Shown: in pieces, positions 1-17,091 of the stretch
How positions within the stretch are numbered: position 1 is the first letter of the stretch
Layout of the letters: each line of letters opens with the position of its first letter
NCBI RefSeq assembly: GCF_900087015.1
Contig: NZ_FLKP01000002.1
Coordinates: 1,984,001-2,048,000, forward strand
Length of the DNA: 64,000 nt
Source of the DNA: Christensenella timonensis
GTDB lineage: Bacteria; Bacillota; Clostridia; Christensenellales; Christensenellaceae
Direction: 5' to 3'
Notes under the pieces: model-generated
Told to the model about the DNA's origin: nothing
What the model saw: the letters and a program-made list of their open reading frames with translations, nothing else
Database searches by the model: none
Program-made: the position numbers and the translations under genes

Positions 1-285
1 GCCCCAGTCTACGAGCTTATCCTTTAAAATGTAATGTCCGCCCACCATTTCGTTGGAAAATTCCCACGTATATACTCTTTCCATACTCAATTTATCGTTG
101 GTACAAAAAGGACAGGGCGCGTCGCGTCCCTGCAATACTTCATAACATTTTTTTCCTTCAATATCCGTGATGCCGAATGTTTCCCGGCCCGCTGAATTGA
201 GGTATAAAAGCTCGTAAGTCTCCACATCGGACACATATACCAGTTCGAGCATCTGATCCAGCAGGTCAAGCAACAGGTTTTGCAA
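1..285 (-). CDS. PAS-domain sensory protein, 5' part only (runs off the left edge)
   Basis: The reading frame starts at a TTG at 283-285, preceded by GGAGGG at 292-297, and stays open to base 1, giving 95 codons. The visible part is one PAS domain: LVYVSDVETYELLYLNSAG, then a cysteine-rich turn PCPFCTN typical of PAS domains fused to GGDEF, EAL or histidine-kinase outputs in Clostridia. An ATG-started frame in the same place gives a nonsense protein, so the TTG start is preferred. The output domain lies outside the window, so the signal and function are unknown. It sits just upstream of nothing on its own strand except the window edge and is separated from the phosphorelay genes by a terminator. 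The PAS call is fairly secure; the full protein family is not knowable here. Confidence 0.75.
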   Translation of the reverse strand, partial: MQNLLLDLLDQMLELVYVSDVETYELLYLNSAGRETFGITDIEGKKCYEVLQGRDAPCPFCTNDKLSMERVYTWEFSNEMVGGHYILKDKLVDWG

Positions 286-421
286 AAAAATCCCTCCGAT
301 TTTGCCATAAACTATAAAGAAACGATAAGCATAGCGATTTTGTACCTATTGATCCTATCATATACCACTTTTCAGCAAATGGGAAGTAGAAAAATATTTT
401 TTTAATCCGGAACCGGTATGC

Positions 422-455
422 AAAAAAACAGGCTCCGAAAAGCCCGCAGCCTGCC
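422..455 (-). terminator. Rho-independent terminator of the phosphorelay operon
   Basis: On the minus strand a hairpin with arms AGGCT and AGCCT is followed by seven Ts. It lies 14 bases beyond the stop codon of the receiver/HD gene at 469-1515. Confidence 0.75.
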
Positions 456-468
456 CATGTGATCCTGC

Positions 469-1515
469 TTATGATTTTTCCTTGTTGTTTTCGTAAATGC
501 TCCGGCAATGATCGCCCACCAGCTTGAGCGTTTCCGTCATGACCGGCGAAAATTGCTGGGCGTCCCCCGCCATCAGCGTCTGCAGCGCCTTGTCGTGGCA
601 GCCGCCGTATTTGCACATCAGCTCGTCATAATGGTGCGCAAGCGCTACGGCCTGCGCGCAAATCGGTATGTTATTGCCGGAAAGCTTATCCGGATATCCG
701 CTGCCGTCCCAGCGTTCATGGTGGTAACGGCATATGTTGTAGCAATAATTCGCATAAAACTCGTTTTCGAGGTTTTTCAGCGGATCGATGAGCTTGCATC
801 CCTTTGTCGTATGCGTCATGAATATCTTTTCTTCTTCGGGCGACAGCGATTCCCTGTTGTTGACGATCGACTCCGGCAGCATCAGCTCGCCTACGTCGTG
901 CAGGATGGAAGCCATGCCCATCATTTCGATCTTCTGCGGCGTGAGCCCGTAGTTGTCGTCATAATATTCGTAGATATACTTCAGGATCTCCTTCGTATAA
1001 AGCCGGATGCGCTGGATATGCTCCTTTGTCTCCATCGTCTTGGTTTCCATGACGGAAGTTAAGACCGCGACGATCATTTCGTTGATATCGGAAAGCGCCT
1101 CCGTCTTTTCCTCTATGGCCTCTTCCAGATGGTTCTGGTATTTGTAAAGTTCGATGAGCGTACGCGCGCGCCGTTTGACGATATCCGGCGCAAAGGGTTT
1201 GCGGATATAGTCCACCGCTCCCAGCGAAAGGCCTTTTTCTTCCATTTCGTCAGACCCCGCCGCCGTGATCAGCATAACGGGGATGTCGCGCAGCATATCA
1301 TGGAAGCCCATGTATTCCAGCACATCATAACCGCTTACCTCAGGCATGATCACGTCGAGCAGTACCATCGATATCTCTTTCCTGTGTCCATCGAGCAGCT
1401 CGATCGCCTGCCGCCCTCCGTCTGCCACGAGGACATCATATTCGCTCACCAGCAGGTTTTTGAGCATGTTGCGGTTGATCTCGATGTCGTCCACAACCAA
1501 TATACTGTTTGCCAT
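469..1515 (-). CDS. Response regulator with HD-GYP-like output domain
   Basis: 348 residues. Residues 1-120 are a receiver domain with acidic pocket D9/D10, phospho-acceptor D54 in LLDVIMP, T84 and K106 (RKPF). A helical linker leads to an HD-GYP-like domain with HDVGE and HHERWDGSGYP. The family hydrolyses c-di-GMP when intact. Two signature positions deviate: HDxGK reads HDVGE, and the late metal-ligand segment usually reading VADxxDAL reads ALAHHYDEL. Phosphodiesterase activity is therefore uncertain; it could be a binding or scaffolding output. It is the third gene of an operon with an Hpt protein (10 bases upstream) and a hybrid kinase, so it is the probable terminal receiver of that relay. 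Confidence 0.88.
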   Translation of the reverse strand: MANSILVVDDIEINRNMLKNLLVSEYDVLVADGGRQAIELLDGHRKEISMVLLDVIMPEVSGYDVLEYMGFHDMLRDIPVMLITAAGSDEMEEKGLSLGAVDYIRKPFAPDIVKRRARTLIELYKYQNHLEEAIEEKTEALSDINEMIVAVLTSVMETKTMETKEHIQRIRLYTKEILKYIYEYYDDNYGLTPQKIEMMGMASILHDVGELMLPESIVNNRESLSPEEEKIFMTHTTKGCKLIDPLKNLENEFYANYCYNICRYHHERWDGSGYPDKLSGNNIPICAQAVALAHHYDELMCKYGGCHDKALQTLMAGDAQQFSPVMTETLKLVGDHCRSIYENNKEKS

Positions 1516-1525
1516 GTCCCCTCCC

Positions 1526-1882
1526 CTAGCCTATCCGCTTGATGGTATCGACTGCCGCTTCGTATGCTTCTTTGAGCGCCTGCGCCTCCCGCGCAATATC
1601 CGTTTCCCCGCTTCTAAGCTTATCCACGATGCACGCGCTTTGTTCATATACCCCGCGAAGCCCCAGGTTTCCGCCCAGCCCCTTGAGCGTATGCGCATGT
1701 ACCATCGCCTGCCGCATATCATCCTTGCCATAGGCCGTGCAAAATTCCCCGTAGGTCTGGTCTTCCAGAAACTTGTGCAAAAACTTCACACACAGGCTTT
1801 CATTGCCGCCCATCCGTTTGAGTACGTCCTTCAAATCGATTCCCTGTCCGCTGTATTTTTCCGCAGCCTCCTGAAATGTCAT
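1526..1882 (-). CDS. Histidine phosphotransfer (Hpt) protein
   Basis: 118 residues, a single Hpt four-helix domain. The phospho-accepting histidine is H64 in HAHTLKGLGGNLGL, which matches the family motif closely. The length is typical of a free-standing Hpt. It lies between the hybrid kinase (ends 1916) and the receiver/HD-GYP-like gene (starts 1515) on the same strand, with short gaps. That order suggests a His-Asp-His-Asp relay in which this protein moves phosphate from the kinase receivers to the D54 receiver downstream. Partner specificity is inferred from gene order only. Confidence 0.9.
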   Translation of the reverse strand: MTFQEAAEKYSGQGIDLKDVLKRMGGNESLCVKFLHKFLEDQTYGEFCTAYGKDDMRQAMVHAHTLKGLGGNLGLRGVYEQSACIVDKLRSGETDIAREAQALKEAYEAAVDTIKRIG

Positions 1883-1915
1883 ATTCTGTCCTTTCCGCCA
1901 AACAGCTCCCTTTTA

Positions 1916-4534
1916 TTATAGCAAATAGTCTTTCAGTATGGCAAAGACCACTTTTGCATCGATTGGTTTTGATACGTGCGCATTCATGCCGTTTTTGATC
2001 GATTCCGCAACGTCCTCCCGGAAACCGTTGGCAGTCATGGCCAAGATCACAATATCCTTCGCGTCGGCATGTCCGCTTGCACGGATCGCCTGCGTCGCTT
2101 CGTACCCGTCCATCACGGGCATTTGCACGTCCATCATGATCGCGTCGTAATATCCCGGCGGGGAAGCAACGAACTTTTCAAGCGCCTGCTGCCCGTCGTT
2201 TGCGGTCTCTACCATGAACCCGACTTGTTCGCTCAGGGCCTGCCCGATCTCGCGGTTCAGCTCGCTGTCGTCCACCAAAAGCATGCGTTTGCCTGTAAAA
2301 TCGGGCAGCTCCTCCGTTTCCTCCGCTTCTTCCACGGCCTCGCCCTCAAGCTCCCCGATCACCTGGTACACCGCTTCCCGGAGCACAGGTTTTGTCAGGA
2401 ATCCCTTCACGCCCGCCTCACGCGCTTCCTGCTCGACACGTTTATAGTCATACGCCGACATCAGCACGACGAGGATATCGTTTTTGGCCTCGTTCCTGAT
2501 CCATTCCGTCGTACGGATCCCGTCCACGTCCGGCATGTAAAGGTCGATAAACGCAAAATCAAATGGCTCCGCCGACTTCTTGATGATATGCACGGCCTCC
2601 GCACCCGAACCGGCCTCCTCTGCCCGGATACCCAACTGTTCGCAGATGACCTTTAGGTGCCCGCGCATTTCGTCGTCGTCATCCACCAGCAGTACGCGCA
2701 GGTCTTTCCATTTTTCCGGCAGCTTGCCGTCGTTTACCGGCGCATCCGCAAACTGCAGCCACAGGTCGAACGAGAATTTACTGCCCTTGCCTTCTACGCT
2801 GTGTACGTCGATAGTGCCGCCCATCGTTTCCACAAAGGTTTTGGAAAGCGCCATACCGAGGCCTGTGCCGCCAAACTTGCGCGAAATGTCCGTGCTTTCC
2901 TGCTCAAATGGCAGGAATATCCGGCTCATGAATTCTTCACTCATGCCGATGCCATTATCCGTCACCGAGAAATTCAGGCACGCCGCGTTGCCGCGCTGCG
3001 CCACCTGGCGGATCGCCAGCTTGATCTTCCCGCCCTCCGGCGTGAATTTCACCGCGTTGGAAAGGAAGTTCAAAAGCACCTGCCGGATACGCAGCTCCGC
3101 GCCCACAAAGCGGTCGTTTACCACGTCCCGGAGCATGACGTCGAATATCTGTTCTTTTTCCGCGATCTTCGGCTCCATGATCATGGATATCTCCGAAAGC
3201 ATCACGTTCAAGCTGAACTCCTTTTGCTCGAATTCCATCTTGCCGCTTTCGATCTTGGACATATCGAGCAGGTCGTTGATCAGCTCCAACAAATGCTGCG
3301 CCGCTATATGGACCTTCTTCAAGTCGTTGTTCGGCTTCTTTTCGGCCTCCAGGGAATTCTTCATGACTTCGACAAGCCCGATGATCGTATTTAAGGGCGT
3401 GCGGATCTCGTGGCTCATGCGCGATAGGAACTCCCGCTTGGCCTTGTTTGCGCTGCGCGCGTCGTCCAGTGCGGATTCCAGCATTTTCTTCGATACTTTT
3501 TCCGCCGTCAGGTCGCTCGTCACAAACACGTGTTTGACGACCCTGCCGTTTTCCAGGATGGGATACAGCTTGCTGTGCAGCTCTTTTTCCGTTCCTGTCT
3601 TGGGGTCGTGTATCATGAAATCAAATTCTATGATCTCCCGCGTCTTCGCAAGTTCCACCGTCTTGCGCACCCTCGCAAACTCATCGTCGCTGAAATAGGA
3701 ACGCGCGATCCACATGTTGTGCTTGTAGTCTTCCACAGGCAGCCCCAGGATGCGCCCGGCGTTGTCGCTGATGTATTCCACCTTTTCGCCGACACAATCG
3801 TATATCATGAACACATCGTCCACGTTTTCCGATATGATCTTAAAGAGCATATCGTTGTGGTAGATGTCCGCATTCCGCTTGGTAATAGTGTGCGCGCTCA
3901 TGATAGACAGCAGCAAAGTAATACCGATCAAGGCGCCGCCCCATATGAGCGCCATCATGTTCGTACGGTCGTTAAGAGCGGTCGTACTCTCCACGTAATG
4001 CGCGATGTGCTGCTGCGAATCGCTGATGACCCGGGCAATGAGCTGATCCGCTTCCTGATAGACCGGATAGGCCTCAGTATACAAGATCGCTTTTGCCTCG
4101 TCGAGTTTGCCCTGGTAGATGAGCTCGATACACCGGTCGTGCTGCGTGCGCAGGGTATCGAAATCCTCAAACAGCGTCGCGACCAGCTGGGGATCCCCCT
4201 GGTATTGCTCCTGCAGCACGCGCCGGATGGCGGGCTGCTCTTTGCGGTTCTCATACATCCGCTCCAGGTTTTCCCGCTGGTTATCGAAATTTTCATCGTC
4301 TGTCAGCATACTGAGCATCGTATTGCGCGCATACAAAATCTGCAGCCGCATTTTCCAGGCCGCTTCGTTCACCGCGTAAGGTTCCTGATATATTTCATTT
4401 GTGTACCGTGCAAGGCGATCGGTATTTACGATCGTCATACCCGCAAAAGCGGTCACGCCGATGGAAATAACAAAGACAGTCAATATAAGGAGCGTATTGA
4501 CGTTCTTCAGTTTCCATCTTTTCCTCTTCCCCAT
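1916..4534 (-). CDS. Membrane hybrid sensor histidine kinase with two receiver domains
   Basis: 872 residues. Membrane segments lie near residues 10-32 and 192-215 and flank a helical extracytoplasmic domain of about 160 residues, like four-helix-bundle sensors. A PAS domain follows (about 225-345), then HisKA with the phospho-histidine motif FLSRMSHEIRTPLN, then an HATPase with N-, G1 and G2-type boxes (LLNFLSNAVKFTP, DNGIGMS, GTGLGMAL). Two receivers close the protein: one with FIDLYMPDVDG and a C-terminal one with MMDVQMPVMDG. It is the first gene of the relay operon with Hpt and receiver/HD genes. GGGGCAGG precedes the ATG. The sensed signal cannot be told from sequence. Confidence 0.93.
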   Translation of the reverse strand: MGKRKRWKLKNVNTLLILTVFVISIGVTAFAGMTIVNTDRLARYTNEIYQEPYAVNEAAWKMRLQILYARNTMLSMLTDDENFDNQRENLERMYENRKEQPAIRRVLQEQYQGDPQLVATLFEDFDTLRTQHDRCIELIYQGKLDEAKAILYTEAYPVYQEADQLIARVISDSQQHIAHYVESTTALNDRTNMMALIWGGALIGITLLLSIMSAHTITKRNADIYHNDMLFKIISENVDDVFMIYDCVGEKVEYISDNAGRILGLPVEDYKHNMWIARSYFSDDEFARVRKTVELAKTREIIEFDFMIHDPKTGTEKELHSKLYPILENGRVVKHVFVTSDLTAEKVSKKMLESALDDARSANKAKREFLSRMSHEIRTPLNTIIGLVEVMKNSLEAEKKPNNDLKKVHIAAQHLLELINDLLDMSKIESGKMEFEQKEFSLNVMLSEISMIMEPKIAEKEQIFDVMLRDVVNDRFVGAELRIRQVLLNFLSNAVKFTPEGGKIKLAIRQVAQRGNAACLNFSVTDNGIGMSEEFMSRIFLPFEQESTDISRKFGGTGLGMALSKTFVETMGGTIDVHSVEGKGSKFSFDLWLQFADAPVNDGKLPEKWKDLRVLLVDDDDEMRGHLKVICEQLGIRAEEAGSGAEAVHIIKKSAEPFDFAFIDLYMPDVDGIRTTEWIRNEAKNDILVVLMSAYDYKRVEQEAREAGVKGFLTKPVLREAVYQVIGELEGEAVEEAEETEELPDFTGKRMLLVDDSELNREIGQALSEQVGFMVETANDGQQALEKFVASPPGYYDAIMMDVQMPVMDGYEATQAIRASGHADAKDIVILAMTANGFREDVAESIKNGMNAHVSKPIDAKVVFAILKDYLL

Positions 4535-4701
4535 AACCTGCCCCTACTTTATTTATATGCCCGGTCGCAAAAAAATATTCCGAAGAAAAGAAAACCTCTC
4601 TATTGTGACTATTCGATACGGTTCCCTGTTTTTCCTGTCGCATTTTGCAAAAAAGCCTTTGTTAAGCTGTTTATATGTATTCCTCGCTCAGTCATATTTA
4701 T

Positions 4702-4731
4702 ATTATATAACCCTGTTTGCCACCCCTGTAA
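4702..4731 (-). promoter_or_regulatory. Probable sigma-A promoter of the phosphorelay operon
   Basis: On the minus strand TTACAG (4726-4731) and TATAAT (4702-4707) are separated by 18 bases, about 170 bases upstream of the histidine-kinase ATG. The rest of the long leader (4535-4690) shows no gene that I can support. Confidence 0.5.
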
Positions 4732-4737
4732 CATCAA

Positions 4738-4771
4738 AAGGCACGCAGCCGCAAGCGGCCCGTGCCTTTTT
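4738..4771. terminator. Bidirectional terminator closing the hydrogenase/TnpB-like operon
   Basis: The arms GGCACGGGCCGC and GCGGCTGCGTGCC (minus-strand sense) form a GC-rich stem with T runs on both sides. For the minus strand it ends the operon whose last gene is the TnpB-like CDS. No plus-strand gene upstream needs it. Confidence 0.85.
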
Positions 4772-4888
4772 CTCAGATAGCTGCGCTTTTACGCATATGC
4801 GCTCCGCTCGGCGGATATCCACCCGGGAAACGTCCGCAGGCAATCCCCCAGTGTGACGGCGCGGCAGCAAAATGCGCCGTATATGGTT
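4772..4888 (-). other. Foldable 3' region of the TnpB-like gene; candidate guide-RNA region
   Basis: These 117 bases lie between the TAA of the TnpB-like gene and its terminator and contain no reading frame of note. On the minus strand the first element is a perfect 7-bp hairpin (ACGGCGC ... GCGCCGT, 4856-4880, 11-nt loop). Next come GCGGA/TCCGC arms and a small TGCG/CGCA hairpin just before the terminator. TnpB and nuclease-dead relatives take their guide RNA from exactly this position (3' end of the gene and just beyond). That this stretch is such an RNA is inference from position and foldability; no sequence match to a known scaffold was tested. Confidence 0.3.
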
Positions 4889-6457
4889 TTATTTTACATC
4901 GACGATCGCGATCTCTTCGCGCGGGTTCGTGATGCCAATAAACTTTTTATAATAGCTGATCTTCTTCGCACCGGCGCGGATGGGCGCGTTTCCGTTCGCC
5001 TTCCATTTTTCCACCAGCTCGCCGATGTAGTCGTAAAAGCCATCGATCGCTTCGCGCGTGTAATCCGTTTCGTACCGGATATCGAGGATCTTGTTGGAAA
5101 GCGTGATCCGTCCGTGTGCGACGCTCGCTTCAAAGGGCAGCAGGCTGCCGCCGTACTTTTGCAGCCTGCGCGCCGCATTTGCCGCGCCCACGCTTTCGGT
5201 CTCCCCCGCAAAGCCGCACTTGACGCACAGGAATTTATCCTGCATGAACCGGTTTTTGAGCGTATTGGCGCCGCACCGCGGACAGGTGTAAAAAAGCCCG
5301 CGCGGACTGACGGTGACCGGCCTTGCCAGCCCCTTGAGCTCCGCCTTGTAAGAAACCATGGACATCAGTTTATTGAACTGCCCCGCCGTCAGGCAGGCAA
5401 GGCGCCCTTCCCGCGAGAGCTGGTCGCCCATGTGGCCGAGGTGGTAGCTGACGATCTTGCTCTTGTGTTCCTGCGCCGCCAAAACGATCTGTTTGGCAGC
5501 GGTATGGAAATCATTTTTCGAGGGCGCCTCCGGCATCCTGACCGTCCGCTCCGCGACAAGCCTGCCCTCCTGATCCACCACCGCATAGCGCGCCGCCGCC
5601 ACAAGGCTGCGCGTCACGCCGAGGAAGGTTTTTTCCGGCAGGCTTTTTGCCGGGGCCGCCGCTGTATTCACCAGCAGGTAATATTTTCCGTTCTTTTCCT
5701 TGAGCCGTGCGGTCTTGAAGATCGATGGGTCGCTGAGCCCCTGCCGGAGCACCTTTTGCTGCTCCTTGCCAAAGGAAAGCGGCAGCACCAGGTAACGTTC
5801 TCGCTTGTTGTCTTTTTCCAGGAGCCCGCCATCGCCGGCGACGTAGCGCAGGCAGCTATTGCCGCGCATAATCCCCCCGCGCCGTCCTTCGTCCCGCACG
5901 TTCATCAGGTACAGCTTTGCGTAAAACCTGTCCTTTTGTTCGTCGTACAACAGGCAATAATCGCGGTTTTTGGCGTATCGCCCGAAGAGGATCGGCTTTT
6001 TCATATGCAGCCCGTCATAAAGCTTTTTCAGCTGCGCCTCCAGCGCCCGCCTGCCGATGCCGCCCCCGTCATAGCTGCAAAGCAGCTCGTGGATCGCGCG
6101 GTCTGCTATCCGCCCTTCGCGCACCAGGCGCGGATAGCGTGCGTTCTTTTGCGACCTCCTGAGCGCGATCCACGCGATCATCGTCATGGCGTAATCGAGC
6201 TTTAAGGAATCCTTGAAGGGCTGCACGCCGAAATCATTCAGCGAATCCATCAGCTCCTTTGAGAGCAGTGCGGTGATGCGGCGCGAAAGGAAGCTCGCGC
6301 CACTGTGCATCTCGTCCACGATATCAGGGATATAGCCCTTGGTATGCTCGAGCAGGTAGCCCATCGCGTCGTTATACTGCCCGATCGCGCGATCCATGAC
6401 CTTCCTTTTTTCCGCGGTGGGCTTATGTATTTGTAAGGCGATTGTTTTGATGACCAT
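4889..6457 (-). CDS. TnpB/Cas12-like protein with apparently inactivated RuvC domain
   Basis: 522 residues. The N-terminus (KTIALQIHKPTAEKRKVM) looks like the wedge strand that opens TnpB proteins. A helical region follows, then KTARLKEKNGKYYLLVN, the strand pair preceding RuvC. RuvC-I reads FLGVTRSLV where TnpB has GxDxG, so aspartate is replaced by T282. RuvC-II reads IVSYHL where IVxEDL is expected, giving Y338 for glutamate. The zinc ribbon C392/C395/C411/C414 is intact. RuvC-III reads GAANAARRL where DxNAA is expected, giving A425 for aspartate. About 90 residues beyond RuvC-III have no counterpart I know. The ATG abuts the TGA of the phosphatase gene, so it is the last gene of the hydrogenase operon and probably translationally coupled. 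No TnpA gene or element ends are seen. The family call is confident; nuclease-dead is read by eye; an RNA-guided binding role is inference. Confidence 0.85.
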   Translation of the reverse strand: MVIKTIALQIHKPTAEKRKVMDRAIGQYNDAMGYLLEHTKGYIPDIVDEMHSGASFLSRRITALLSKELMDSLNDFGVQPFKDSLKLDYAMTMIAWIALRRSQKNARYPRLVREGRIADRAIHELLCSYDGGGIGRRALEAQLKKLYDGLHMKKPILFGRYAKNRDYCLLYDEQKDRFYAKLYLMNVRDEGRRGGIMRGNSCLRYVAGDGGLLEKDNKRERYLVLPLSFGKEQQKVLRQGLSDPSIFKTARLKEKNGKYYLLVNTAAAPAKSLPEKTFLGVTRSLVAAARYAVVDQEGRLVAERTVRMPEAPSKNDFHTAAKQIVLAAQEHKSKIVSYHLGHMGDQLSREGRLACLTAGQFNKLMSMVSYKAELKGLARPVTVSPRGLFYTCPRCGANTLKNRFMQDKFLCVKCGFAGETESVGAANAARRLQKYGGSLLPFEASVAHGRITLSNKILDIRYETDYTREAIDGFYDYIGELVEKWKANGNAPIRAGAKKISYYKKFIGITNPREEIAIVDVK

Positions 6458-7630
6458 TCAGCAGTACTCGATCTCCACTTCCTTGCCCATGGCGCGCATG
6501 GTCTGCGCGATATCCTTCACCAAACGCAGCTTCAGGCTCAAATTAATGGGCAGGTCGGGGTTCTGGTGGGCAGGATTTAAAGCCCTGCCCACGATAAAGT
6601 GCGCGCGCGTGCAATCCTCCAGCAGTATCTTCGCCAGCCGGGACGCGCCGTCGTTTTTGTACAGGTTGAAGATATCGTCCATGGCGCTTGCGGACGACAT
6701 ATATTTTTGCATGATCTCCTGCGTCTTTGCCAGCGTGACCACGCCCTCCGTCACCAGGTCGATCCCGTCGATCAGCCCCACCGGCGGTACGTCCGGGTCT
6801 TTGTAGTCGATCTTGACGGAAAGCTCCCTGCCCGAAACGCGGCTCACAATCTGCGACGTCGTCCCGCCGCACACGACCTTGAACCCGTCCACGCTAAGCA
6901 GGCGCCTGACGATCTCTTCATCGCGCGAACCGTCTACCGGCGGCCCCACCATGATGTGCGCGGGACGCGATTTGCGTATTTTCGTAGTCACGAACGTCGT
7001 ATCGTCGCCCGGCTTTTCGTCGTAGAGCGAATCGCACGCCGACAACAGCAGCTTGGTCATGGCGCGCGCGGGCATATCCTTCCCGTACGCGCGGCACGCA
7101 TATTCCACGATGTTGTCGCGCTGCCAGCCGAAATTCAAAAGCTGGCCTACGCCCGCATGGATCGCGCCGTCCGAAAAGGCGATGCACATGTCGCCTTCCT
7201 TCATCTCGAAGCGGCTTTCCAGTATTTTCTTGTCGCCGATCTCGATCTCTTCCTTATCGATTACGACTTCTTTTCCGCCCCTCACGAGGATCACCTGCGG
7301 GTTATCGAATTCCACGAGGTGCGCCTGTCCCTGTTTGTTTACGCGCAGGATCGTGAACGTACAGTACGCAAGCCCGCGCACGCTGCACACCGGCAGTGTG
7401 GAGGCGACCGTTTCCACCGTTTCGTAGATATCCGCGCCGTCCGCGAGCATCGTCGCCGCGATCTTGGAGGTGAGCGTAGAGAGGATATTCGCCTTGACCC
7501 CGCTCCCGAGGCCGTCCGCGAGCACGATCGTCACCACGTCGCCCTTGCGCACGATCTCTACCTTATCGCCGCACAGCTCTTCCCCATATTTGAAAAGGCT
7601 GCCCGGGCTTGTCTCAATAAATACGCTCAT
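6458..7630 (-). CDS. SpoIIE/PP2C-type serine phosphatase of the hydrogenase cluster (HsfB-like)
   Basis: 390 residues. The first 220 or so form a PP2C/SpoIIE phosphatase domain with the metal-binding motifs LADGLGSG, FSDGAIHAG and PGDDTTF. The remaining 165 residues are an accessory domain I do not recognise in detail. Similar phosphatases are known next to PAS-containing [FeFe] hydrogenases in anaerobes, where they are thought to act in H2-dependent signalling. The start overlaps the end of the sensory hydrogenase gene by 17 bases and its stop abuts the TnpB-like gene, so all three should be made together. Substrate unknown. Confidence 0.88.
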   Translation of the reverse strand: MSVFIETSPGSLFKYGEELCGDKVEIVRKGDVVTIVLADGLGSGVKANILSTLTSKIAATMLADGADIYETVETVASTLPVCSVRGLAYCTFTILRVNKQGQAHLVEFDNPQVILVRGGKEVVIDKEEIEIGDKKILESRFEMKEGDMCIAFSDGAIHAGVGQLLNFGWQRDNIVEYACRAYGKDMPARAMTKLLLSACDSLYDEKPGDDTTFVTTKIRKSRPAHIMVGPPVDGSRDEEIVRRLLSVDGFKVVCGGTTSQIVSRVSGRELSVKIDYKDPDVPPVGLIDGIDLVTEGVVTLAKTQEIMQKYMSSASAMDDIFNLYKNDGASRLAKILLEDCTRAHFIVGRALNPAHQNPDLPINLSLKLRLVKDIAQTMRAMGKEVEIEYC

Positions 7631-9332
7631 CTTCGGACTCCTGGATATATTTCTTGAGGTTGGTGAGCGCGATCTTCGTTTCCGCCGTCGTTTCCCCCAG
7701 CAGGCTTGCGATCTCCTGTGCCACGCGCATTTGCTTGTCGATGACCTTCTGCGTGACCTCGACGGTCTCCGCGCGCATTTCGTTCATCTTATGCTGCTGG
7801 TGCTCGTCCTCCGTGATGTCCTTGATCAGCAGCAGGTAGATGGAATTCTCACGGATAAAGATGGTGGACTGCTCCACTGTGATATCAAGGTCCTTATAAT
7901 ATACCTTGCGGTCGAAAATATTTTCCCCCGTCTCCCTGACCTCGTCGATGTCGTCGCAGTCGATGATCATGGAGATCGGACGCCCGACATAGTTTTTCTC
8001 GTTTAAGCGGAAAAGCTCCGCCGCCGCGCTGTTGTATTCCATGAGGTTGAAATCGCCGTCCAAAATCACGATGGCGTTGGGCGTGTTGTCCATCACCACG
8101 TTAGAGATGCTTTCCGCCTTTTCCCGCATGAACGGCAGGCACATGCGCATATCCGCCTTGCCCTGCAATACGGCGATCGCCTTGTCGCGGCACGTCGAAT
8201 AACCGCAGCCGCCGCAATTGAGTATTTTGTCGTCGCTCGTCTTGCCCATGCGCAAAAACACCTGCTGTATTTCCTCTTCCGTCGGCTCGTGGCGTTTGGG
8301 CACACGGCTTTCGTACTGCCACGAAAAATCGAGCCGCGTATCTTCTGAAACGGGCGCCTGTGCAGCCTTGCGGTTCTTGACGTATTTGAGCGTATTGTCT
8401 TTGGAGAGCAAATACGCCGGACTGCATTCCTTAAGGCCGGGGCCGCCGAGGCAGCTGCCGGGGCAGGCGTTCATCTCCAGGAAATAATTCGTGATCTCCC
8501 CGCCTTTTAAGGAATCCAATATTTCCACGCAGCGGTCGATCCCGTCGATCGCCACGCATTGATAGTTTGCGCGCGCCTGCTTGTCTATCGTCTGGATGAT
8601 GCCGCCGGGAATGGGATACAGGCGGTTGACCGTCGCCTTCATCTCGCGGACGTCGCCGTCCTCCTGCTCCAAATCGACGCCCTCGTCCTTCAGCCAGTTC
8701 ATCACCTCGTCAAAGAGCAGCACCGCGTCGATCGCGCCGCCGCCTTTTTCTTCCTGCGCCTCGTGGATTTTGGAAATGCACGGGCCGATGAAAACCGTTT
8801 TGATGCGGCTGCCATACACTTCCTTCATCATCTTGCCGTGCGCCGTCATAGGGGCGGCTACGGGCGCTAAATACTTGACCAGCTCCGGGTAATATTTTTC
8901 CACCAGCAGCACGAGCGTCGGACAGCAGGTGGTGATGATATTGCCCATCTTATGCTCTTTCATCAGCCCTTCAAAGCTGCGGGACACCTGCGCGGCGCCG
9001 ATGGACGTTTCCTCCACGCCTGTAAAGCCCAGCTTTTTGAGGGCGGCGGAAATCTTCGGGAACGTCGCGTCCTTATAACAGCTCGCAAAGGACGGCGCTA
9101 CGGACACGTATACCTTTTCGCCGTTTTTGAGATATCCCTTTACCGTTTCCAGGCTGGAATTGATGGATTTTGCATTCTGGGGGCAAGCAAGGAAGCAATG
9201 CCCGCACAAAATACACTCCCTTTCGGTGATCTCCGCCTGCTCGTTTTTGAAGGCGATGGATTTCACCTGGCAGCTCCGGATACATTTATAACAGTTTTTA
9301 CAATTCGCTTCTTTGAACTGGATGATACTCAT
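7614..9332 (-). CDS. hydS: PAS-containing sensory-type [FeFe] hydrogenase (group C, HydS-like)
   Basis: 572 residues. Two N-terminal [4Fe-4S] ferredoxin motifs (C11-C21 and C40-C50) precede an H-cluster domain with divergent signatures: TTCCPTLV (C136/C137), GPCISKIHE (C185) and MNACPGSCLGGPG (C290, C294). A further four-cysteine cluster motif CGGCGYSTC...MRMC lies at 373-398, then a PAS domain (about 410-510) and a short coiled coil. This architecture is that of putatively H2-sensing hydrogenases, usually placed beside a bifurcating HydABC and a phosphatase, as here. AGAGGT precedes the ATG. A sensing rather than catalytic role comes from family knowledge, not from this sequence alone. Confidence 0.9.
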   Translation of the reverse strand: MSIIQFKEANCKNCYKCIRSCQVKSIAFKNEQAEITERECILCGHCFLACPQNAKSINSSLETVKGYLKNGEKVYVSVAPSFASCYKDATFPKISAALKKLGFTGVEETSIGAAQVSRSFEGLMKEHKMGNIITTCCPTLVLLVEKYYPELVKYLAPVAAPMTAHGKMMKEVYGSRIKTVFIGPCISKIHEAQEEKGGGAIDAVLLFDEVMNWLKDEGVDLEQEDGDVREMKATVNRLYPIPGGIIQTIDKQARANYQCVAIDGIDRCVEILDSLKGGEITNYFLEMNACPGSCLGGPGLKECSPAYLLSKDNTLKYVKNRKAAQAPVSEDTRLDFSWQYESRVPKRHEPTEEEIQQVFLRMGKTSDDKILNCGGCGYSTCRDKAIAVLQGKADMRMCLPFMREKAESISNVVMDNTPNAIVILDGDFNLMEYNSAAAELFRLNEKNYVGRPISMIIDCDDIDEVRETGENIFDRKVYYKDLDITVEQSTIFIRENSIYLLLIKDITEDEHQQHKMNEMRAETVEVTQKVIDKQMRVAQEIASLLGETTAETKIALTNLKKYIQESEDERIY

Positions 9333-9490
9333 ATTCTACCTCTTTTTGGTTCGGCGCAAGCTTCGTCAGGGCGTTTGTTTCCGTCAGTCGTTCCGGTCGA
9401 CATGCAAACCGCTCAGGTTTTGCTTCGCAAAAACTCGCTCTTGCAAGCGCCGGCGTCGCTCCGCCGGATCAATCACGCCCGCGCCGCGCG
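9333..9490 (-). other. Intercistronic region with two hairpins inside the hydrogenase operon
   Basis: 158 bases without a supportable gene, unusual in an operon whose other junctions overlap or are short. It holds a perfect 6-bp hairpin CCGGCG/CGCCGG (9450-9467) and GTTTTGC/GCAAAAA arms around TTC (9417-9433). Neither is followed by a T run on the minus strand, so they are not ordinary terminators; they may set mRNA stability or processing. Confidence 0.4.
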
Positions 9491-9733
9491 TCACATTTTG
9501 GCAAGCACCTGCTCCTTGAAAAAGTCGCCGACGTTATCAGAATTGACGGAGAATACTTCCTCGCCGATCTGTACGGACACCGCGTCCGTGCAGTGCCCGA
9601 GGCAAAATACGCCCGTAAGCTCCACCTCGTCGCCCAACCCCTTTTCCTCGATCATCTCCTGCAGCTCGCTCACCACGTTGTAAGACCCTTTCAGGTGGCA
9701 TGCGCTCCCGATACATACGCTGATTGTCATCAT
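9491..9733 (-). CDS. Small thioredoxin-like [2Fe-2S] ferredoxin
   Basis: 80 residues. The pattern CIGSACHLKGS (C7, C12) and FCLGHC (C44, C48) is the thioredoxin-like [2Fe-2S] fold found in NuoE/HydC and at the N-terminus of NuoF-type subunits. It overlaps the hydA stop by 4 bases, so translation is probably coupled. In this operon it could be an extra electron carrier or a small subunit of the bifurcating hydrogenase; HydC and the HydB N-terminus already supply similar domains, so its separate job is unclear. Confidence 0.85.
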   Translation of the reverse strand: MMTISVCIGSACHLKGSYNVVSELQEMIEEKGLGDEVELTGVFCLGHCTDAVSVQIGEEVFSVNSDNVGDFFKEQVLAKM

Positions 9734-11454
9734 GATTTTATTCCCTCCCCTTTTGTGTAATTAACGTGCAGCAGCTCGTGCACCTTATTTTTTAAAATCC
9801 CACTATACAGTGACATCATAACCGGATTTTCTTCCGAACGCTTGACCTGGCATAGCTTGTCCGCGTCATACAGTCCCCTTGAGCGTTCCTGTTTTCCTTC
9901 CCGGCGGGCAAAGGGCTGCCCCGCGCCCGCGATACAGCCGCCCGGGCATGCCATGACTTCCACAAAGTCGTAGCTTGCTTCGCCGTTTTTGATTTTCCGG
10001 ATCAGCTTTTCGGCATTTGCCAGGCCATTTACGACCGCGATCTTTATGCGTTTATCCCCGCCCAGCGGGATGTTCGCCTCTTTTGTACCCTCAAGGCCGC
10101 GCACGCCCGTATAAGCGATATTATGCAGCATGTTGTTGCTTTTGTCGTCCACCACGCGGCGGATGACCGCCTCTGCTACGCCGCCCGTCACGCCGAAGAT
10201 GACACCCGCGCCCGATGTGATACCAAAGGGCATATCGGCAGCCTCCGGGTCGATGTCCTCGAACACGATGCCCGCCTGCTTTAAGATGCTGGCAAACTCC
10301 TGCGTGGTGATTACGCCGTCCGTATCCCTGCCGCCATCCCCATGGATAAATTCGGGACGTACCTGCTCGTCCTTTTTGGCCGTGCACGGCATGATGGCGA
10401 ACACAACTGTCTCCTTGCCGTCCACCTCCTGTACCTGCTTGAAGTGCTCCTTGATCACGGCCGAGAATATCTGCATGGGCGATTTGCAGGTGGAAACCTG
10501 CCCCATCAGCTCCGGATGCGTATTTTCCGCATATTTGACCCACGCCGGGCAGCAGGACGTAAACAACGGCAGCTTGCCGCCCTCCTTATACTTTTTCAAA
10601 AACTCCTTGGATTCTTCCATGACCGTGAGGTCTGCGCCCATCGTCGTATCGTATACCTCGTCCACGCCCATCTTCCTGAGCGCGCCTACAATTTTTCCGG
10701 CGACGTTTACGCCCGGTTCCAGCCCGAACTCGTCGCCCAGCGCCACGCGGACGGCCGGCGCATACTGCACGACTACGCGCTTGGTATCGTCATAAAGCGC
10801 GTCCCAGAACTTCTGGGTGCAGTTGCGGATCACGATCGCGCCCGTCGGGCACACCGACGCGCACTGTCCGCAGTTGACACAATTTGTTTCGGCAAGCGGC
10901 TTGCCCCACGCTGTGGAGACCGTCATATTGGAACCGCGGTGCGCAAAGTCGATCGCTCCCACATTCTGTATCTCCGAGCACATGCGCACACAGTCGCCGC
11001 ACAGGATACACTTGGATTCGTCGCGGATGATGGACAGCGCCGACTCGTCGACCTTTGCTTCCTTCTTCGTGTTTTCAAAGCGCACGCTGTCGATGCCGAA
11101 GCGAAGCGCCAGCTCCTGCAGGCGGCATTTCCCATTTTTGGGGCACGTCGTGCAGTCGCGGCAATGGCTCGCCAGCAGCAGCTCCAAAATCATCTTGCGG
11201 TGGCGAAATAGCTGCGGCGTATTCGTCTTGATCTTCATTTTATCGCGCGGCGGCGTGGAACACGAGGCAATAACGCCGCCCCATTCGTCCTCCACCACGC
11301 ACATACGGCACGCGCCGTAAATGGACAGGTCGGAATAGTAACAGAACGTGGGCAGCTCGATACCCGCTTTGCGGATAACCGCCAAAATATTCTGCTCGTC
11401 ATCGTAATTCACGATCTGTCCGTCTATAATCATATGCTTTTTATCAGTCATCAT
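9730..11454 (-). CDS. hydA: [FeFe] hydrogenase catalytic subunit HydA
   Basis: 574 residues. Order of domains: plant-type [2Fe-2S] (C38, C49, C52, C65), His/Cys-ligated [4Fe-4S] (H97, C101, C104, C110), two [4Fe-4S] ferredoxin motifs (149-159, 192-202), and the H-cluster domain with FTSCCPAWV (C301/C302), MPCTAKKDE (C357) and MACPGGCIAGAGQP (C503, C507). All signature residues are present, so it should be an active H2-producing or H2-oxidising enzyme. Together with HydB and HydC it matches the trimeric electron-bifurcating hydrogenase that couples NADH and reduced ferredoxin to H2. GGAGG lies just ahead of the ATG. Confidence 0.97.
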   Translation of the reverse strand: MMTDKKHMIIDGQIVNYDDEQNILAVIRKAGIELPTFCYYSDLSIYGACRMCVVEDEWGGVIASCSTPPRDKMKIKTNTPQLFRHRKMILELLLASHCRDCTTCPKNGKCRLQELALRFGIDSVRFENTKKEAKVDESALSIIRDESKCILCGDCVRMCSEIQNVGAIDFAHRGSNMTVSTAWGKPLAETNCVNCGQCASVCPTGAIVIRNCTQKFWDALYDDTKRVVVQYAPAVRVALGDEFGLEPGVNVAGKIVGALRKMGVDEVYDTTMGADLTVMEESKEFLKKYKEGGKLPLFTSCCPAWVKYAENTHPELMGQVSTCKSPMQIFSAVIKEHFKQVQEVDGKETVVFAIMPCTAKKDEQVRPEFIHGDGGRDTDGVITTQEFASILKQAGIVFEDIDPEAADMPFGITSGAGVIFGVTGGVAEAVIRRVVDDKSNNMLHNIAYTGVRGLEGTKEANIPLGGDKRIKIAVVNGLANAEKLIRKIKNGEASYDFVEVMACPGGCIAGAGQPFARREGKQERSRGLYDADKLCQVKRSEENPVMMSLYSGILKNKVHELLHVNYTKGEGIKS

Positions 11455-11463
11455 AATCCTCCG

Positions 11464-13338
11464 TTAAAACTGCTCGATGACAGCGTTAAAGTTGCAGGCA
11501 TCGACGCACGCGCCGCACTTGATGCACTTGTCCTGGCCGATCGTGTACGGGTGCTTGACCTCACCCGTGATCGCCCCGACCGGGCACTGCCGCGCGCACT
11601 TGCTGCATCCCTTGCACTGCTCGCTTACAATCACGTACCGCTTCATCGCCTGGCAGTTTTTCGCCGGGCACTTTTTATCCACGACGTGCTTTAAGTATTC
11701 GTCTTCAAAATATTTGAGCGTACTGATCACCGGCGACGGCGCCGTCTTTCCGAGGCCGCACAGCGCGGTCTTGGAGATGGTATCCGCCAGCTCGCGCAGC
11801 ATATCGAGGTCTTCCTTTTCTCCCTTGCCCGCAACGATACGTTCCAAAATCTCCAGCATACGCATCGTACCCTCGCGGCACGGCACGCATTTGCCGCACG
11901 ATTCGTTTTGCGTGAAGTTCATGAAGAAACGCGCCACTTCGACCATGCAGGTATCCTCGTCCATGACCACAAGGCCGCCCGAGCCGATCATCGCGCCCAC
12001 CTTTTTGAGCGAATCAAAATCAAGCGGCAGGTCGAGGTGTTCCTTGGTAAGGCAGCCGCCCGAAGGCCCGCCGATCTGTACCGCTTTGAATTCCTTGCCG
12101 TTTTTCACGCCGCCGCCGATATCAAAGATGATCTCCCGCAGCGTCGTTCCCATCGGTACTTCGATGAGGCCGGTGTTGTTGACGTTGCCCGTTAAGGCGA
12201 ACGCCTTGGTTCCCGGGCTTGATTCCGTGCCCATCTTCCTATACCAATCGGCTCCTTCCAAAATGATCATGGGGATGTTGGCGTATGTCTCTACATTGGA
12301 AAGCACCGTCGGCTTGCCGAACAACCCCTGCTCCACCGTGCGCGGCGGCTTGACGCGCGGCATGCCTCGGTTTCCCTCGATGGAAGCTGTCAGCGCGCTG
12401 CCCTCGCCGCATACGAACGCGCCCGCGCCCTGGTTGATTTTAAGGTCAAAGGCAAAGCCGCTGCCGAGGATATCCTCTCCCAAAAGCCCCTCTTTACGCG
12501 CAGCAGCGATAGCCGTTTGCAAGCGCTTGACTGCCAACGGATATTCCGACCGCACGTAGATATACCCTTCGTGGGCGCCTGCCGCGATGCCCGCGATCAT
12601 CATCCCTTCGATCATGCGGTGTGAATCGCCTTCCATGATGCTCCTGTCCATGAACGCGCCCGGGTCTCCCTCATCGCCGTTGCACACCACATATTTCACA
12701 GGTTCCGCCTGCCGCGCGACCTGCTGCAGCTTGCGTCCCGTAGGGAACCCGCCGCCGCCGCGCCCGCGCAGGCCGCAGTCAAGGATTTCCTGCACAATGC
12801 CTTCCGGCTGCATATCGAAAAGCGCCTTCGCAACCGCCTGGTAGCCGCCGCGCGCGATATATTCCATCAATGATTCCGTATCCGTGTGCCCGCAGTTGGA
12901 AAGCACCATCCGCGTCTGCTTGCTGTAAAACGGGATGTCCTCCTGCGCCGCGTACGCTTTGCCGTCCTGCGTGAACAGCAGGCGCTGCACCGGTTCGCTG
13001 CCCACAAGGCTTTTTTCGAGGATTTCTTCACAGTCCTCCGGCTTCACTTTGACATACAGCCAGCCGTGCGGCTCGATGCGCAGCAGCGGCCCCATTTCGC
13101 AAAAGCCGTGGCAGCCGCTCTTTTTAAAGGCGATCTCCTCGTGCGGCTCCGCTTTCAGTTCCACCGACACAGGGAGGCCCTTTCGCTCTGCCAATTCCTT
13201 TAAACGTTCATAGATCTCCAGCGATCCCCCCGCCACGCAGCCCGTGCCCGCGCATACCAGCACCTTCTTATACTGCGCGTCGAGCGATTTTTTATATTGC
13301 TCTTTCGTTTGATTCAGTTCTGCCACATTTTGTATCAT
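11464..13338 (-). CDS. hydB: Bifurcating hydrogenase subunit HydB (NuoF-like)
   Basis: About 624 residues from the ATG at 13338, chosen because AGGGGAG precedes it and the start clears the hydC stop; a longer frame to 13392 would overlap hydC. The N-terminal thioredoxin-like [2Fe-2S] domain (CAGTGCVAGG) is followed by the NuoF FMN/NAD core (GRGGGGFPTGRK, NGDEGDPGAFMDR), the NuoF [4Fe-4S] motif ESCGKCVPCREG, and two C-terminal [4Fe-4S] motifs (CKGCSKCARQCP, CIKCGACVDAC). It is the flavin subunit where electron bifurcation is thought to occur. It lies between hydC and hydA. Confidence 0.95.
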   Translation of the reverse strand: MIQNVAELNQTKEQYKKSLDAQYKKVLVCAGTGCVAGGSLEIYERLKELAERKGLPVSVELKAEPHEEIAFKKSGCHGFCEMGPLLRIEPHGWLYVKVKPEDCEEILEKSLVGSEPVQRLLFTQDGKAYAAQEDIPFYSKQTRMVLSNCGHTDTESLMEYIARGGYQAVAKALFDMQPEGIVQEILDCGLRGRGGGGFPTGRKLQQVARQAEPVKYVVCNGDEGDPGAFMDRSIMEGDSHRMIEGMMIAGIAAGAHEGYIYVRSEYPLAVKRLQTAIAAARKEGLLGEDILGSGFAFDLKINQGAGAFVCGEGSALTASIEGNRGMPRVKPPRTVEQGLFGKPTVLSNVETYANIPMIILEGADWYRKMGTESSPGTKAFALTGNVNNTGLIEVPMGTTLREIIFDIGGGVKNGKEFKAVQIGGPSGGCLTKEHLDLPLDFDSLKKVGAMIGSGGLVVMDEDTCMVEVARFFMNFTQNESCGKCVPCREGTMRMLEILERIVAGKGEKEDLDMLRELADTISKTALCGLGKTAPSPVISTLKYFEDEYLKHVVDKKCPAKNCQAMKRYVIVSEQCKGCSKCARQCPVGAITGEVKHPYTIGQDKCIKCGACVDACNFNAVIEQF

Positions 13339-13364
13339 ACCGTTATATTCTCCCCTAAAGCGGT

Positions 13365-13826
13365 TTATTTCAGCGTATCCAGCAACTCGCACGCCGATTC
13401 GGGCGTCATGGCCGGGTAGACCTTGTCATTGACCGTCAGCACAGGCGCAAGGCCGCATGCCCCCAGGCAGGAGACCGTTTCCACCGTATACAGCATATCT
13501 TCCGTCGTCTTTTTTTTATCCGTCAAATGCAGTTTTTTGCGGAGCGCGTCTAAGATCGGTATGGACTTGCGCACATGGCACGCCGTCCCGTCGCAGATCT
13601 TGATCACGTATTTGCCCTTGGGCTCCAATGAAAAATTCTCGTAGAAGGTGGCAATGGAATACACCTTCGCTTCCCCCACGTTAAGCTTTCCGGCCACATA
13701 TGAGAGCGCCTCTTTTGGCAAGTAACGGTAATCCTTCTGGATGTCCTGCAGGATGGGAATGATTTCTGACTGTTTGCTGTGCTCGCTCAAAATCGAGTCG
13801 AGTTTCTTCTTCATTTCAAGATCCAC
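13365..13826 (-). CDS. hydC: Bifurcating hydrogenase subunit HydC (NuoE-like)
   Basis: 153 residues of the thioredoxin-like [2Fe-2S] NuoE family, with the ligand pattern CDGTACHVRKS and CLGACGLAPV. It is the promoter-proximal gene of the hydrogenase operon, 26 bases ahead of the hydB start. It should pass electrons between the flavin of HydB and the iron-sulphur chain. Upstream lies a good promoter whose transcription start is covered by a Rex-type operator. Confidence 0.94.
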   Translation of the reverse strand: MDLEMKKKLDSILSEHSKQSEIIPILQDIQKDYRYLPKEALSYVAGKLNVGEAKVYSIATFYENFSLEPKGKYVIKICDGTACHVRKSIPILDALRKKLHLTDKKKTTEDMLYTVETVSCLGACGLAPVLTVNDKVYPAMTPESACELLDTLK

Positions 13827-13866
13827 GTTTTAGGCTCCTCCGTTTTTCCGCAATTCATGCGATATA

Positions 13867-13884
13867 TTGTTAAATAATTAACAT
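13867..13884. promoter_or_regulatory. Rex-type redox operator of the hydrogenase operon
   Basis: TTGTTAA-ATAA-TTAACAT matches the clostridial Rex consensus TTGTTAANNNNTTAACAA at all but the last base. It occupies roughly +2 to +20 of the predicted hyd transcript. Rex represses when NADH/NAD+ is low, so hydrogenase would be induced when NADH accumulates. Confidence 0.75.
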
Positions 13885-13892
13885 ACTATCCC

Positions 13893-13921
13893 ATTGTATC
13901 TGATTTCATACTATTAGGCAA
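13893..13921 (-). promoter_or_regulatory. Sigma-A promoter of the hydrogenase operon
   Basis: On the minus strand TTGCCT (13916-13921) and TACAAT (13893-13898) are exactly 17 bases apart, placing the start near 13886, directly before the Rex-type operator and about 60 bases from the hydC ATG. Confidence 0.75.
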
Positions 13922-13973
13922 TATAAGATATGGTTTTTTTTGAAAATTTTATGGAAACGGTTTTCAGGGAAAT

Positions 13974-14003
13974 AAAAAACGCCCTCCGCATAGCGCGGAG
14001 GGC
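13974..14003 (-). terminator. Terminator after the membrane-protein gene at 14031
   Basis: A 9-bp stem GCCCTCCGC/GCGGAGGGC is followed on the minus strand by TTTTTTATTT. It separates the repeat-protein/membrane-protein unit from the hydrogenase promoter. Confidence 0.85.
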
Positions 14004-16952: not shown

Positions 16953-16971
16953 TTTTCCTTTTCCTTTCCAT

Positions 16972-17000
16972 AAAAAAAGAAGCACATCCCTGTGCTCCTT
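16972..17000 (-). terminator. Intrinsic terminator in the leader of the repeat-protein gene (possible attenuator)
   Basis: Minus-strand arms AAGGAGCACA and TGTGCTTCTT make a 10-bp stem with a GGGA loop followed by seven Ts. The last T is only about 20 bases from the ATG at 16952, and that gap is filled by the ribosome binding site. Transcription of the repeat gene therefore has to pass through it unless it starts elsewhere. It could also serve as the distant terminator of the DeoR gene. Confidence 0.7.
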
Positions 17001-17021
17001 CCCATATTTTTTTACGATCCC

Positions 17022-17076: not shown

Positions 17077-17091
17077 TTCAGCGCGCAGCGT

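What the first reader, a model, noticed from the sequence alone, without database searches (positions are those of the whole stretch)
4889..6457. Nuclease-dead TnpB/Cas12-like gene as last cistron of a hydrogenase operon
Seen: all three RuvC acidic positions read as other residues (T282, Y338, A425) while the zinc ribbon (C392, C395, C411, C414) and fold-defining segments are kept. The gene is intact at 522 codons, abuts the phosphatase stop codon, and has neither TnpA nor element ends. Known: some TnpB descendants (TldR proteins) lost catalysis and became RNA-guided repressors beside flagellin or transporter genes. Inference: this is an independent domestication, tied to H2 metabolism, that may bind DNA under guide-RNA direction. 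I know of no described case in a hydrogenase operon.
Basis: partly seen in the sequence, partly recalled or inferred. Interest (0 to 1): 0.9.

Follow-up and report, generated by a model that had tools for sequence, protein, structure and literature searches.

The report
Dead TnpB with RNA regulating hydrogenases
A gut bacterium's hydrogen-metabolism operon ends in a relative of a DNA-cutting, RNA-guided enzyme that has lost its cutting site but kept a dedicated small RNA, whose tip matches a sequence found in promoters of hydrogenase operons in related bacteria, so it is probably a natural RNA-guided gene switch for hydrogen metabolism.

Summary
The finding is real and larger than reported. 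The gene (minus strand, 4889-6457, 522 aa) belongs to a family of which I found 20 members in Clostridia. All 20 lie within about 3.3 kb of a PAS-type sensory [FeFe]-hydrogenase and SpoIIE-type phosphatase pair. The RuvC-I aspartate is lost in 20 of 20, the RuvC-II glutamate in 18.

New here: each member is followed by a conserved RNA (about 80-115 nt) with a covarying pseudoknot and no Rfam match, found in 14 of 366 Clostridia genomes, all carrying the gene. The RNA ends in UAUCU(G/A) (UAUUUA in one). AAAACCN followed by the own tail's first five bases occurs in hydrogenase promoters of 12 of 20 loci; the motif is absent upstream of 22 nuoE genes of genomes lacking the family. Most sites lie upstream of the predicted -35 box at helically phased spacings, suggesting activation.

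Best reading: an RNA-guided transcription factor with a fixed, roughly 6-8-nt seed, wired to an H2 sensor. Nothing is shown experimentally; 4 of 6 Christensenella lack a site, and the window's own match is 5 nt.

The parts
4889..6457 (-). Nuclease-dead TnpB/Cas12f-like protein, 522 aa; RuvC-I D to T282, RuvC-II E to Y338, RuvC-III D to E421; zinc ribbon kept
4775..4885 (-). Conserved partner RNA (guide-RNA-like scaffold plus tail), directly downstream of the gene; ends not mapped; model match 4767-4885
   Evidence: 78.4 bits
4858..4878 (-). P1 hairpin GGCGC-ATTTTGCTGCC-GCGCC; its loop holds the 5' strand of the pseudoknot (GCTGC, 4868-4864). The single-sequence MFE fold of the window copy does not show it; that of L048 does
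   Evidence: read from the sequences; coordinates; folds
4803..4815 (-). P2 hairpin TCCGC-CGA-GCGGA (CTTAC-AGA-GTAAG in distant relatives)
4780..4784 (-). 3' strand of the pseudoknot (GCAGC)
4768..4779 (-). Putative short guide TATCTGAG..; core TATCT in 19 of 20 members (TATTT in L020)
4736..4771 (-). Intrinsic-terminator-like hairpin directly after the tail
6458..7630 (-). SpoIIE-type (PP2C) phosphatase
7614..9332 (-). PAS-containing [FeFe]-hydrogenase (HydS/HfsB-like putative H2 sensor)
9491..9733 (-). Thioredoxin-like [2Fe-2S] protein, 80 aa
9730..11454 (-). Catalytic [FeFe]-hydrogenase HydA
11464..13392 (-). NuoF-like diaphorase subunit
13365..13826 (-). NuoE-like subunit, first gene of the cluster
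13917..13937 (-). Putative target in the promoter region: AAAACCA (TAM-like) then TATCTTATATTGCC; 5 contiguous nt match the own tail; core ends 4 nt before a -35-like TTGCCT (13921-13916)
13869..13882 (-). Rex-like operator GTTAATTATTTAAC in the same promoter region
   Evidence: pattern only

Best explanation
The gene product is a nuclease-dead TnpB/Cas12f-type protein that binds the RNA encoded directly downstream. The RNA's 3' tail, UAUCU(G/A)A, is a fixed guide of about 6-8 nt. The RNP binds promoters that carry AAAACC(G/A/T)-TATCT(A/G), with AAAACC(G/A/T) acting as a TAM, and regulates, most likely activates, hydrogenase operons and, in some genomes, alcohol dehydrogenase and other redox genes. 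Its activity or expression is tied to H2 or redox state through the PAS sensory hydrogenase and the SpoIIE phosphatase of the same cluster. Shown computationally: family, loss of catalytic residues, partner RNA with a pseudoknot, co-occurrence, promoter motif, tail-motif match, geometry. Inferred: RNA binding, DNA binding, activation, and the signalling link.
For: 20 of 20 members lie near HydPAS and SpoIIE. RuvC-I Asp lost 20 of 20, RuvC-II Glu 18 of 20. Foldseek top hit AsCas12f-sgRNA-DNA, E 3.9e-13, model pLDDT 81.8. RNA downstream of 20 of 20; pseudoknot 100% paired, 3 double-compensatory cells, 0 of 500 shuffles for those two measures. RNA model, built from these 20, hits 14 of 366 genomes, one copy each, all carrying the gene. 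AAAACCN plus own tail 5-mer in own hydrogenase promoters: 12 of 20 loci, at most 2 at any of the other 82 RNA offsets. The motif is among the top k-mers of these promoters with the Rex-like operator. NuoE upstream regions: strict motif in 8 of 15 family loci, 0 of 22 with sequence (23 loci, 15 genomes) lacking the family. Genome-wide hits outside the loci that defined the motif: five inspected intergenic hits, three before NuoE-type operons (all in G250), one before an Fe-ADH, one before a DHODB-Fe-S-domain protein; a sixth is unclear. Own guide beats swapped guides in contiguous exact match, p=0.002. TldR guides of 6 nt suffice (PMC13418256, passage).
Against: L010-L013 (4 of 6 Christensenella) have no recognisable site in the 500 nt before NuoE; L009, L057 and L058 are near-misses of the strict motif. 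In the six Christensenella genomes 9 of 9 AAACCRTATCTA hits are in coding sequence. Exact contiguous match is 3 nt in L055, 4 in L009 and 5 in the window. Identity over 12 nt is no better than with swapped guides (p 0.45 and 0.23), so any guide is very short. The tail is nearly invariant, so the tail-motif match is close to one evolutionary event, not 20. Genome-wide the patterns are not enriched over the reversed pattern (34 against 52; 36 against 39); only location is striking, and 7 of 13 intergenic hits are the sites that defined the motif. No expression, binding or phenotype data.
Confidence: 0.6

Rival explanations
1. The same RNP acts as a TldR-type repressor: it binds the sites and blocks transcription or an upstream activator.
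For: Characterised TldRs repress (PMC13418256, passages). In the window and L009 the core ends 4 nt before the predicted -35 box.
Against: At nine non-Christensenella sites the core ends 46-49 nt upstream of the best predicted -35, and at three tandem copies 18 nt, where a roadblock of RNA polymerase is unlikely. Predictions, not mapped starts.
Confidence: 0.15
2. AAAACCRTATCTA is the operator of an unrelated transcription factor. The RNA tail is only scaffold or terminator leader and resembles it by chance; the protein-RNA complex does something else.
For: The tail is short and nearly invariant. A 5-6-mer match to a 13-nt motif by chance is of order 1-2% (my estimate, not a call). Four of 6 Christensenella lack the site.
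Against: The match starts exactly at the first base after the pseudoknot strand and sits exactly behind the conserved AAAACCN. Extended own-guide matches of 8-10 nt in L048, L050 and L052. The C-to-T change in the L020 guide is mirrored in its promoter site, although L055 shows that such a site can arise without a guide change. Motif absent from 22 NuoE upstream regions of genomes without the family.
Confidence: 0.2
3. The protein has lost RNA guidance and works as a structural or allosteric partner of the sensory hydrogenase and phosphatase.
For: Constant linkage to HydPAS and SpoIIE. Faster evolution than three neighbouring genes.
Against: A covarying guide-RNA-like RNA is kept next to each of the 20 members and was found only beside the gene, once per genome, in the 366 genomes searched.
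Confidence: 0.05

Closest known systems
TldR (TnpB-like nuclease-dead repressors)
   Same: TnpB fold with inactivated RuvC, gRNA encoded next to the gene, lost from transposons and tied to a host gene, 6-nt seeds sufficient (PMC13418256, passages; original 2024 paper recalled, not held)
   Different: Here the guide core is nearly constant across the family, the predicted targets are several operons, most sites lie upstream of the predicted -35 (activator-like), and the gene is linked to an H2 sensor and phosphatase. The word hydrogenase does not occur in the main text of that paper.
dCas12f with sigma factor (exapted Cas12f)
   Same: Natural nuclease-dead Cas12f-like protein that drives RNA-guided transcription (recalled; only the PDB titles of 9n9c and 9n9m seen)
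   Different: No sigma-factor gene noticed beside the gene (by eye) and no repeat array in window 1-14000. Different host genes and RNA.
Cas12m (type V-M)
   Same: Non-canonical RuvC; protects by transcriptional silencing without double-strand cleavage (PMC10442227, start of abstract in search listing)
   Different: CRISPR-associated defence effector; here no array within 14 kb and host-gene targets.
hfs / HydS sensory [FeFe]-hydrogenase modules
   Same: PAS hydrogenase linked to control of fermentation; hfsA or hfsB deletion raises ethanol yield with increased adhE expression in Thermoanaerobacterium saccharolyticum (PMC5707799, abstract, passages and Background)
   Different: The link from hfs to adhE is not resolved there; here a dead TnpB with RNA sits in the cluster, with adhE between phosphatase and dead TnpB in L019, L048 and L050 (Pfam for L019; L048 and L050 by their sequence).

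Membership tests
TldR | Homology to TnpB/Cas12f | tested here: met
   Pfam above cut-off; 18 of 20 members match guided_TnpB at E<=0.001, the window member far below its curated cut-off; Foldseek to Cas12f/TnpB
TldR | RuvC catalytic triad inactivated | tested here: met
   RuvC-I Asp in 0 of 20, RuvC-II Glu in 2 of 20; RuvC-III position acidic in 19 of 20. Inactivity itself not assayed
TldR | Guide RNA encoded directly beside the gene | tested here: met
   RNA begins within about 50 nt of the stop in 20 of 20; pseudoknot covariation. Expression and binding not tested
TldR | Guide matches a host promoter next to a TAM | tested here: inconclusive
   TAM-like plus TAT site in 15 of 20 loci, exact contiguous match 3-10 nt; no site in 5
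TldR | No longer part of a transposon | tested here: inconclusive
   Same host-gene neighbourhood in 20 of 20; no HMM scan for TnpA and no search for element ends
TldR | RNA-guided repression | not testable with these tools
   Needs expression or binding data; geometry suggests activation
Active TnpB / Cas12f nuclease | Intact RuvC D/E/D | tested here: not met
   hhalign
CRISPR-Cas type V-F | CRISPR array near the effector | tested here: not met
   No direct repeats of 20 bp or more within 200 bp in window 1-14000; the rest of the genome and the other 19 loci were not searched for arrays

The most novel reading that the evidence does not exclude
A natural RNA-guided transcriptional activator with a hard-wired guide of about 6-8 nt that controls a regulon (hydrogenases, in some genomes alcohol dehydrogenases and other redox genes) from helically phased sites upstream of -35, and is switched by a sensory [FeFe]-hydrogenase and phosphatase: an RNA-guided H2-response regulator.
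Probability: 0.42. Interest if true: 0.95.

Novelty: new variant of a known kind. Interest (0 to 1): 0.88.

Why it matters
[quoted passage not shown] This family offers a concrete, testable effector. It would also be an RNA-guided factor used as a multi-operon regulator with a conserved short seed, which bears on how DNA-cutting nucleases become ordinary transcription factors, and on control of H2 and ethanol formation in anaerobes.

Tried and rejected
Single-sequence search of genome contigs found no relative; the 6-row alignment found 5 loci, of which L016-L018 are the same contigs as L011-L013 by length and were dropped. Viral contigs: none. Phylum draw: only the own genome, 1 of 398. Searches around G179 and G250 gave no new members. 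First structure from 6 sequences was poor (pLDDT 61.6); the 20-sequence model replaced it.

Rejected: the tail as a long guide (no own match of 10 or more bases with at most one mismatch recurred at hydrogenase promoters; identity over 12 nt not above swapped guides). Rejected: a known RNA family: nothing at gathering score for 18 of the 20 RNAs (L055 and L056 not scanned), nor near it at E<=10 for two of them. Rejected as sites: pattern hits in coding sequence (14 of 19 inspected, 17 of 30). Rejected: A425 as the catalytic position. No residue-level superposition on a solved structure was possible. L060 and L061 proved to be ordinary TnpBs with intact motifs; two further weak hits (G217, G461) were not inspected.

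Full report
The gene. The ORF is intact on the minus strand at 4889-6457 and starts directly after the phosphatase stop. The cluster reads NuoE, NuoF, HydA, an 80-aa thioredoxin-like protein, a PAS-containing [FeFe]-hydrogenase, a SpoIIE-type phosphatase, then this gene (order by position). The genus is Christensenella: three same-genus genomes match named Christensenella contigs by length and place.

The family. In a search of 101 genomes, 8 matched. Six are the own genus (the only six of that genus listed; 51-69% identity to the query outside the own genome); the other two are ordinary TnpBs. An alignment search found two distant members, L019 and L020. A draw of 391 Clostridia genomes gave 19 matching genomes: 3 of the own genus, 12 new full-length members and 4 weak hits, of which two were inspected and are ordinary TnpBs. 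Total: 20 distinct members, 28-69% identical to the window protein. Further draws added none.

Neighbourhood. In 20 of 20 members the PAS hydrogenase and a SpoIIE-type phosphatase are near. In 16 the phosphatase is the direct neighbour; in L019, L048, L049 and L050 about 2.8-3.3 kb lie between, filled by AdhE in L019, L048 and L050 (L049 not looked at). In L020 the phosphatase is only 29% identical over 220 residues. In the 391-genome draw, 98 genomes have the PAS hydrogenase at E<=1e-120. The 15 that carry the dead TnpB are the 15 best-scoring ones (49-100% identity); the others are at most 46% identical.

Active site. Position 282 is S, T, A, V or G and never D; 338 is Q 9, Y 6, K 3, E 2; 421 is E 13, D 6, G 1; the four cysteines are invariant. 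Profile-profile alignment with three TnpBs puts T282, Y338 and E421 opposite the triad. So cleavage is very unlikely, but the claim rests on the first two positions. dN/dS is 0.08-0.17 in six pairs, higher than in three neighbouring genes. The 20-sequence model (pLDDT 81.8, pTM 0.60) matches an AsCas12f complex best (E 3.9e-13, TM 0.47 by query).

The RNA. Downstream of each of the 20 genes is a conserved RNA: a P1 hairpin whose loop (GCTGC) pairs with GCAGC near the 3' end, a second hairpin with changed but still complementary arms, then TATCT (TATTT in L020) and, read by eye, a terminator-like hairpin. The pseudoknot pairs in 100% of cells with three double-compensatory cells; no shuffle of 500 reached the paired percentage, these cells or the covariation score, 7 of 500 reached the number of doubly changed pairs, and the number of pair types was not above shuffles. 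Rfam has nothing at gathering score for the 18 RNAs scanned. A covariance model, built from these 20, found the RNA in 14 of 366 Clostridia genomes, once each; all 14 are genomes with the gene. The fifteenth known member of the earlier draw, G455, was not among the rows shown. On 43 loci the model found all 20 and one weak hit of 17.5 bits in L177. MFE z-scores are modest for two of three (-1.6, -1.7, -3.9), and the window's MFE fold does not show P1.

The target. k-mer counts in hydrogenase promoters of 15 representative loci put the Rex-like operator and AAAAACCGTATCTA on top. The core TATCT is what follows the pseudoknot strand in the RNA. Requiring AAAACCN before the RNA k-mer, the first position after the pseudoknot matches the own promoter in 13, 12 and 8 of 20 loci for k = 4, 5, 6; no other of 82 offsets exceeds 2. 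Requiring only ACCN the figures are 14, 13 and 9, with next best 6, 4 and 2. Without any such requirement the 6-mer matches in 16 of 20, best of all offsets, but the background is high (median 8, next best 13). Strict sites occur upstream of 8 of 15 family NuoE genes and of 0 of 23 NuoE loci from 15 genomes without the family (one of the 23 had no upstream sequence, two had 371 and 404 nt; 15 of the 83 such genomes were used, and most of these NuoEs are only 33-45% identical to the query). Sites were absent from 15 of 15 PAS-hydrogenase loci without the gene, but present in only 4 of 15 such loci with it, since many sites lie at NuoE instead.

Genome-wide. AAACCRTATCTA has 34 hits in 18 genomes against 52 for the reversed pattern. 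Of 19 inspected, 14 are in coding sequence, including 9 of 9 in Christensenella; the 5 intergenic ones precede NuoE (two), the sensory-hydrogenase operon, an iron alcohol dehydrogenase and a zinc alcohol dehydrogenase. AAAAACCNTATCT has 36 hits in 10 genomes against 39 reversed. Of 30 inspected, 17 are in coding sequence and 13 intergenic: five before NuoE-type operons, five before the sensory-hydrogenase operon, one before the iron alcohol dehydrogenase, one before a protein with the DHODB Fe-S domain that I read as NfnA-like, one unclear. Seven of these 13 are sites that defined the motif; the six others are three NuoE-type operons of G250 (its only three hits of this pattern; in one a 63-codon ORF lies between), the two redox genes and the unclear one. 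NuoE and neighbours in these loci were named by eye. Hit numbers are not above the reversed patterns; the location carries the signal.

Guide-site fit. Own guides fit own sites better than swapped ones by contiguous match (exact: p 0.0018 for 15 loci, 0.0020 for 12 representatives; with wobble 0.008 and 0.011; relatedness not removed), but not by identity over 12 nt (p 0.45 and 0.23). L050 matches 10 nt, L048 and L052 8, the window 5, L009 4, L055 3. L020's guide is TATTTA and its hydrogenase promoter has TATTTA, one of 2 intergenic hits among 15 inspected of 17 in that genome; L055's promoter also has TATTTA with guide TATCTA, which weakens this. L010-L013 have no site; L009, L057 and L058 are near-misses of the strict motif.

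Geometry. From the core to the best-scoring -35 box is 46-49 nt at nine sites (a tenth, L053, is tied between 47 and 74), 18 nt at three proximal copies that lie 30-31 nt after a distal one, 37 nt in L054-L057 (L059: 41 or 37), 4 nt in the window and L009, and 52 at a weak site of L011. These are predictions, not mapped starts. The AAAACC-TAT[CT]T sites listed all point along the operon. This suggests contact with RNA polymerase on one face of the helix rather than blockage.

Mechanism. Most likely the RNP recognises AAAACCR and pairs about 6-8 nt. TldR repression works with 6-nt guides (PMC13418256, passage), so such a short seed is plausible. In T. saccharolyticum, deletions in a sensory-hydrogenase operon change adhE expression through an unresolved route (PMC5707799, abstract and passages); in L019, L048 and L050 the cluster holds adhE, sensor, phosphatase and dead TnpB together. 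The signalling step is inference.

Novelty. Judged by titles and starts of abstracts only, searches for TnpB with hydrogenase (13 of 13 listed), the same with RNA-guided, transcription and Cas12f (15 of 60 listed), TnpB with nuclease-dead and transcription factor (20 of 56), TldR (30 of 196 and 15 of 100), dead Cas12f (20 of 36) and Christensenella with hydrogenase and transposase (2 of 2) showed no description of this family. The library lacks most subscription papers and bioRxiv's own collection, so this is not proof.

Noticed in passing
L108, L110, L111, L126, position 1501: In 4 of 4 genomes of one family (f53) searched, AAAAACCGTATCTGAYCC also lies inside a HATPase gene after a NuoE-like gene (codons L-K-T-V-S-D-P); elsewhere about half to two thirds of shared residues keep the same codon, so it may be a further site or codon coincidence.
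   Followed up: partly
L048, L049, L050, L051 sensory-hydrogenase promoters: Tandem motif copies 29-31 nt apart, about three helical turns; the second copy of L049 reads TATCAA.
   Followed up: partly
L054 8407-8562: Looks like a yybP-ykoY manganese riboswitch before a TerC-like gene downstream (similar sequence in L055-L059 by eye); Rfam score 17 is below the cut-off of 45.
   Followed up: partly
window 14760-17189 (-): ORF of 809 aa with many near-identical repeats of the type KKASTQAAQFGWQPPQG.
   Followed up: no
L010 and L012, downstream of the RNA: A thioredoxin-like gene seems to lie between the RNA and the histidine kinase in these Christensenella (read by eye).
   Followed up: no
L177 1163-1277 (+): Weak RNA-model match (17.5 bits, E 0.19) near a PAS hydrogenase without the protein gene.
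   Followed up: no
window 14898 (-): A second AAACCATATCTTA sequence, inside the end of an ORF and 154 nt upstream of a 237-aa ORF without a Pfam match.
   Followed up: no
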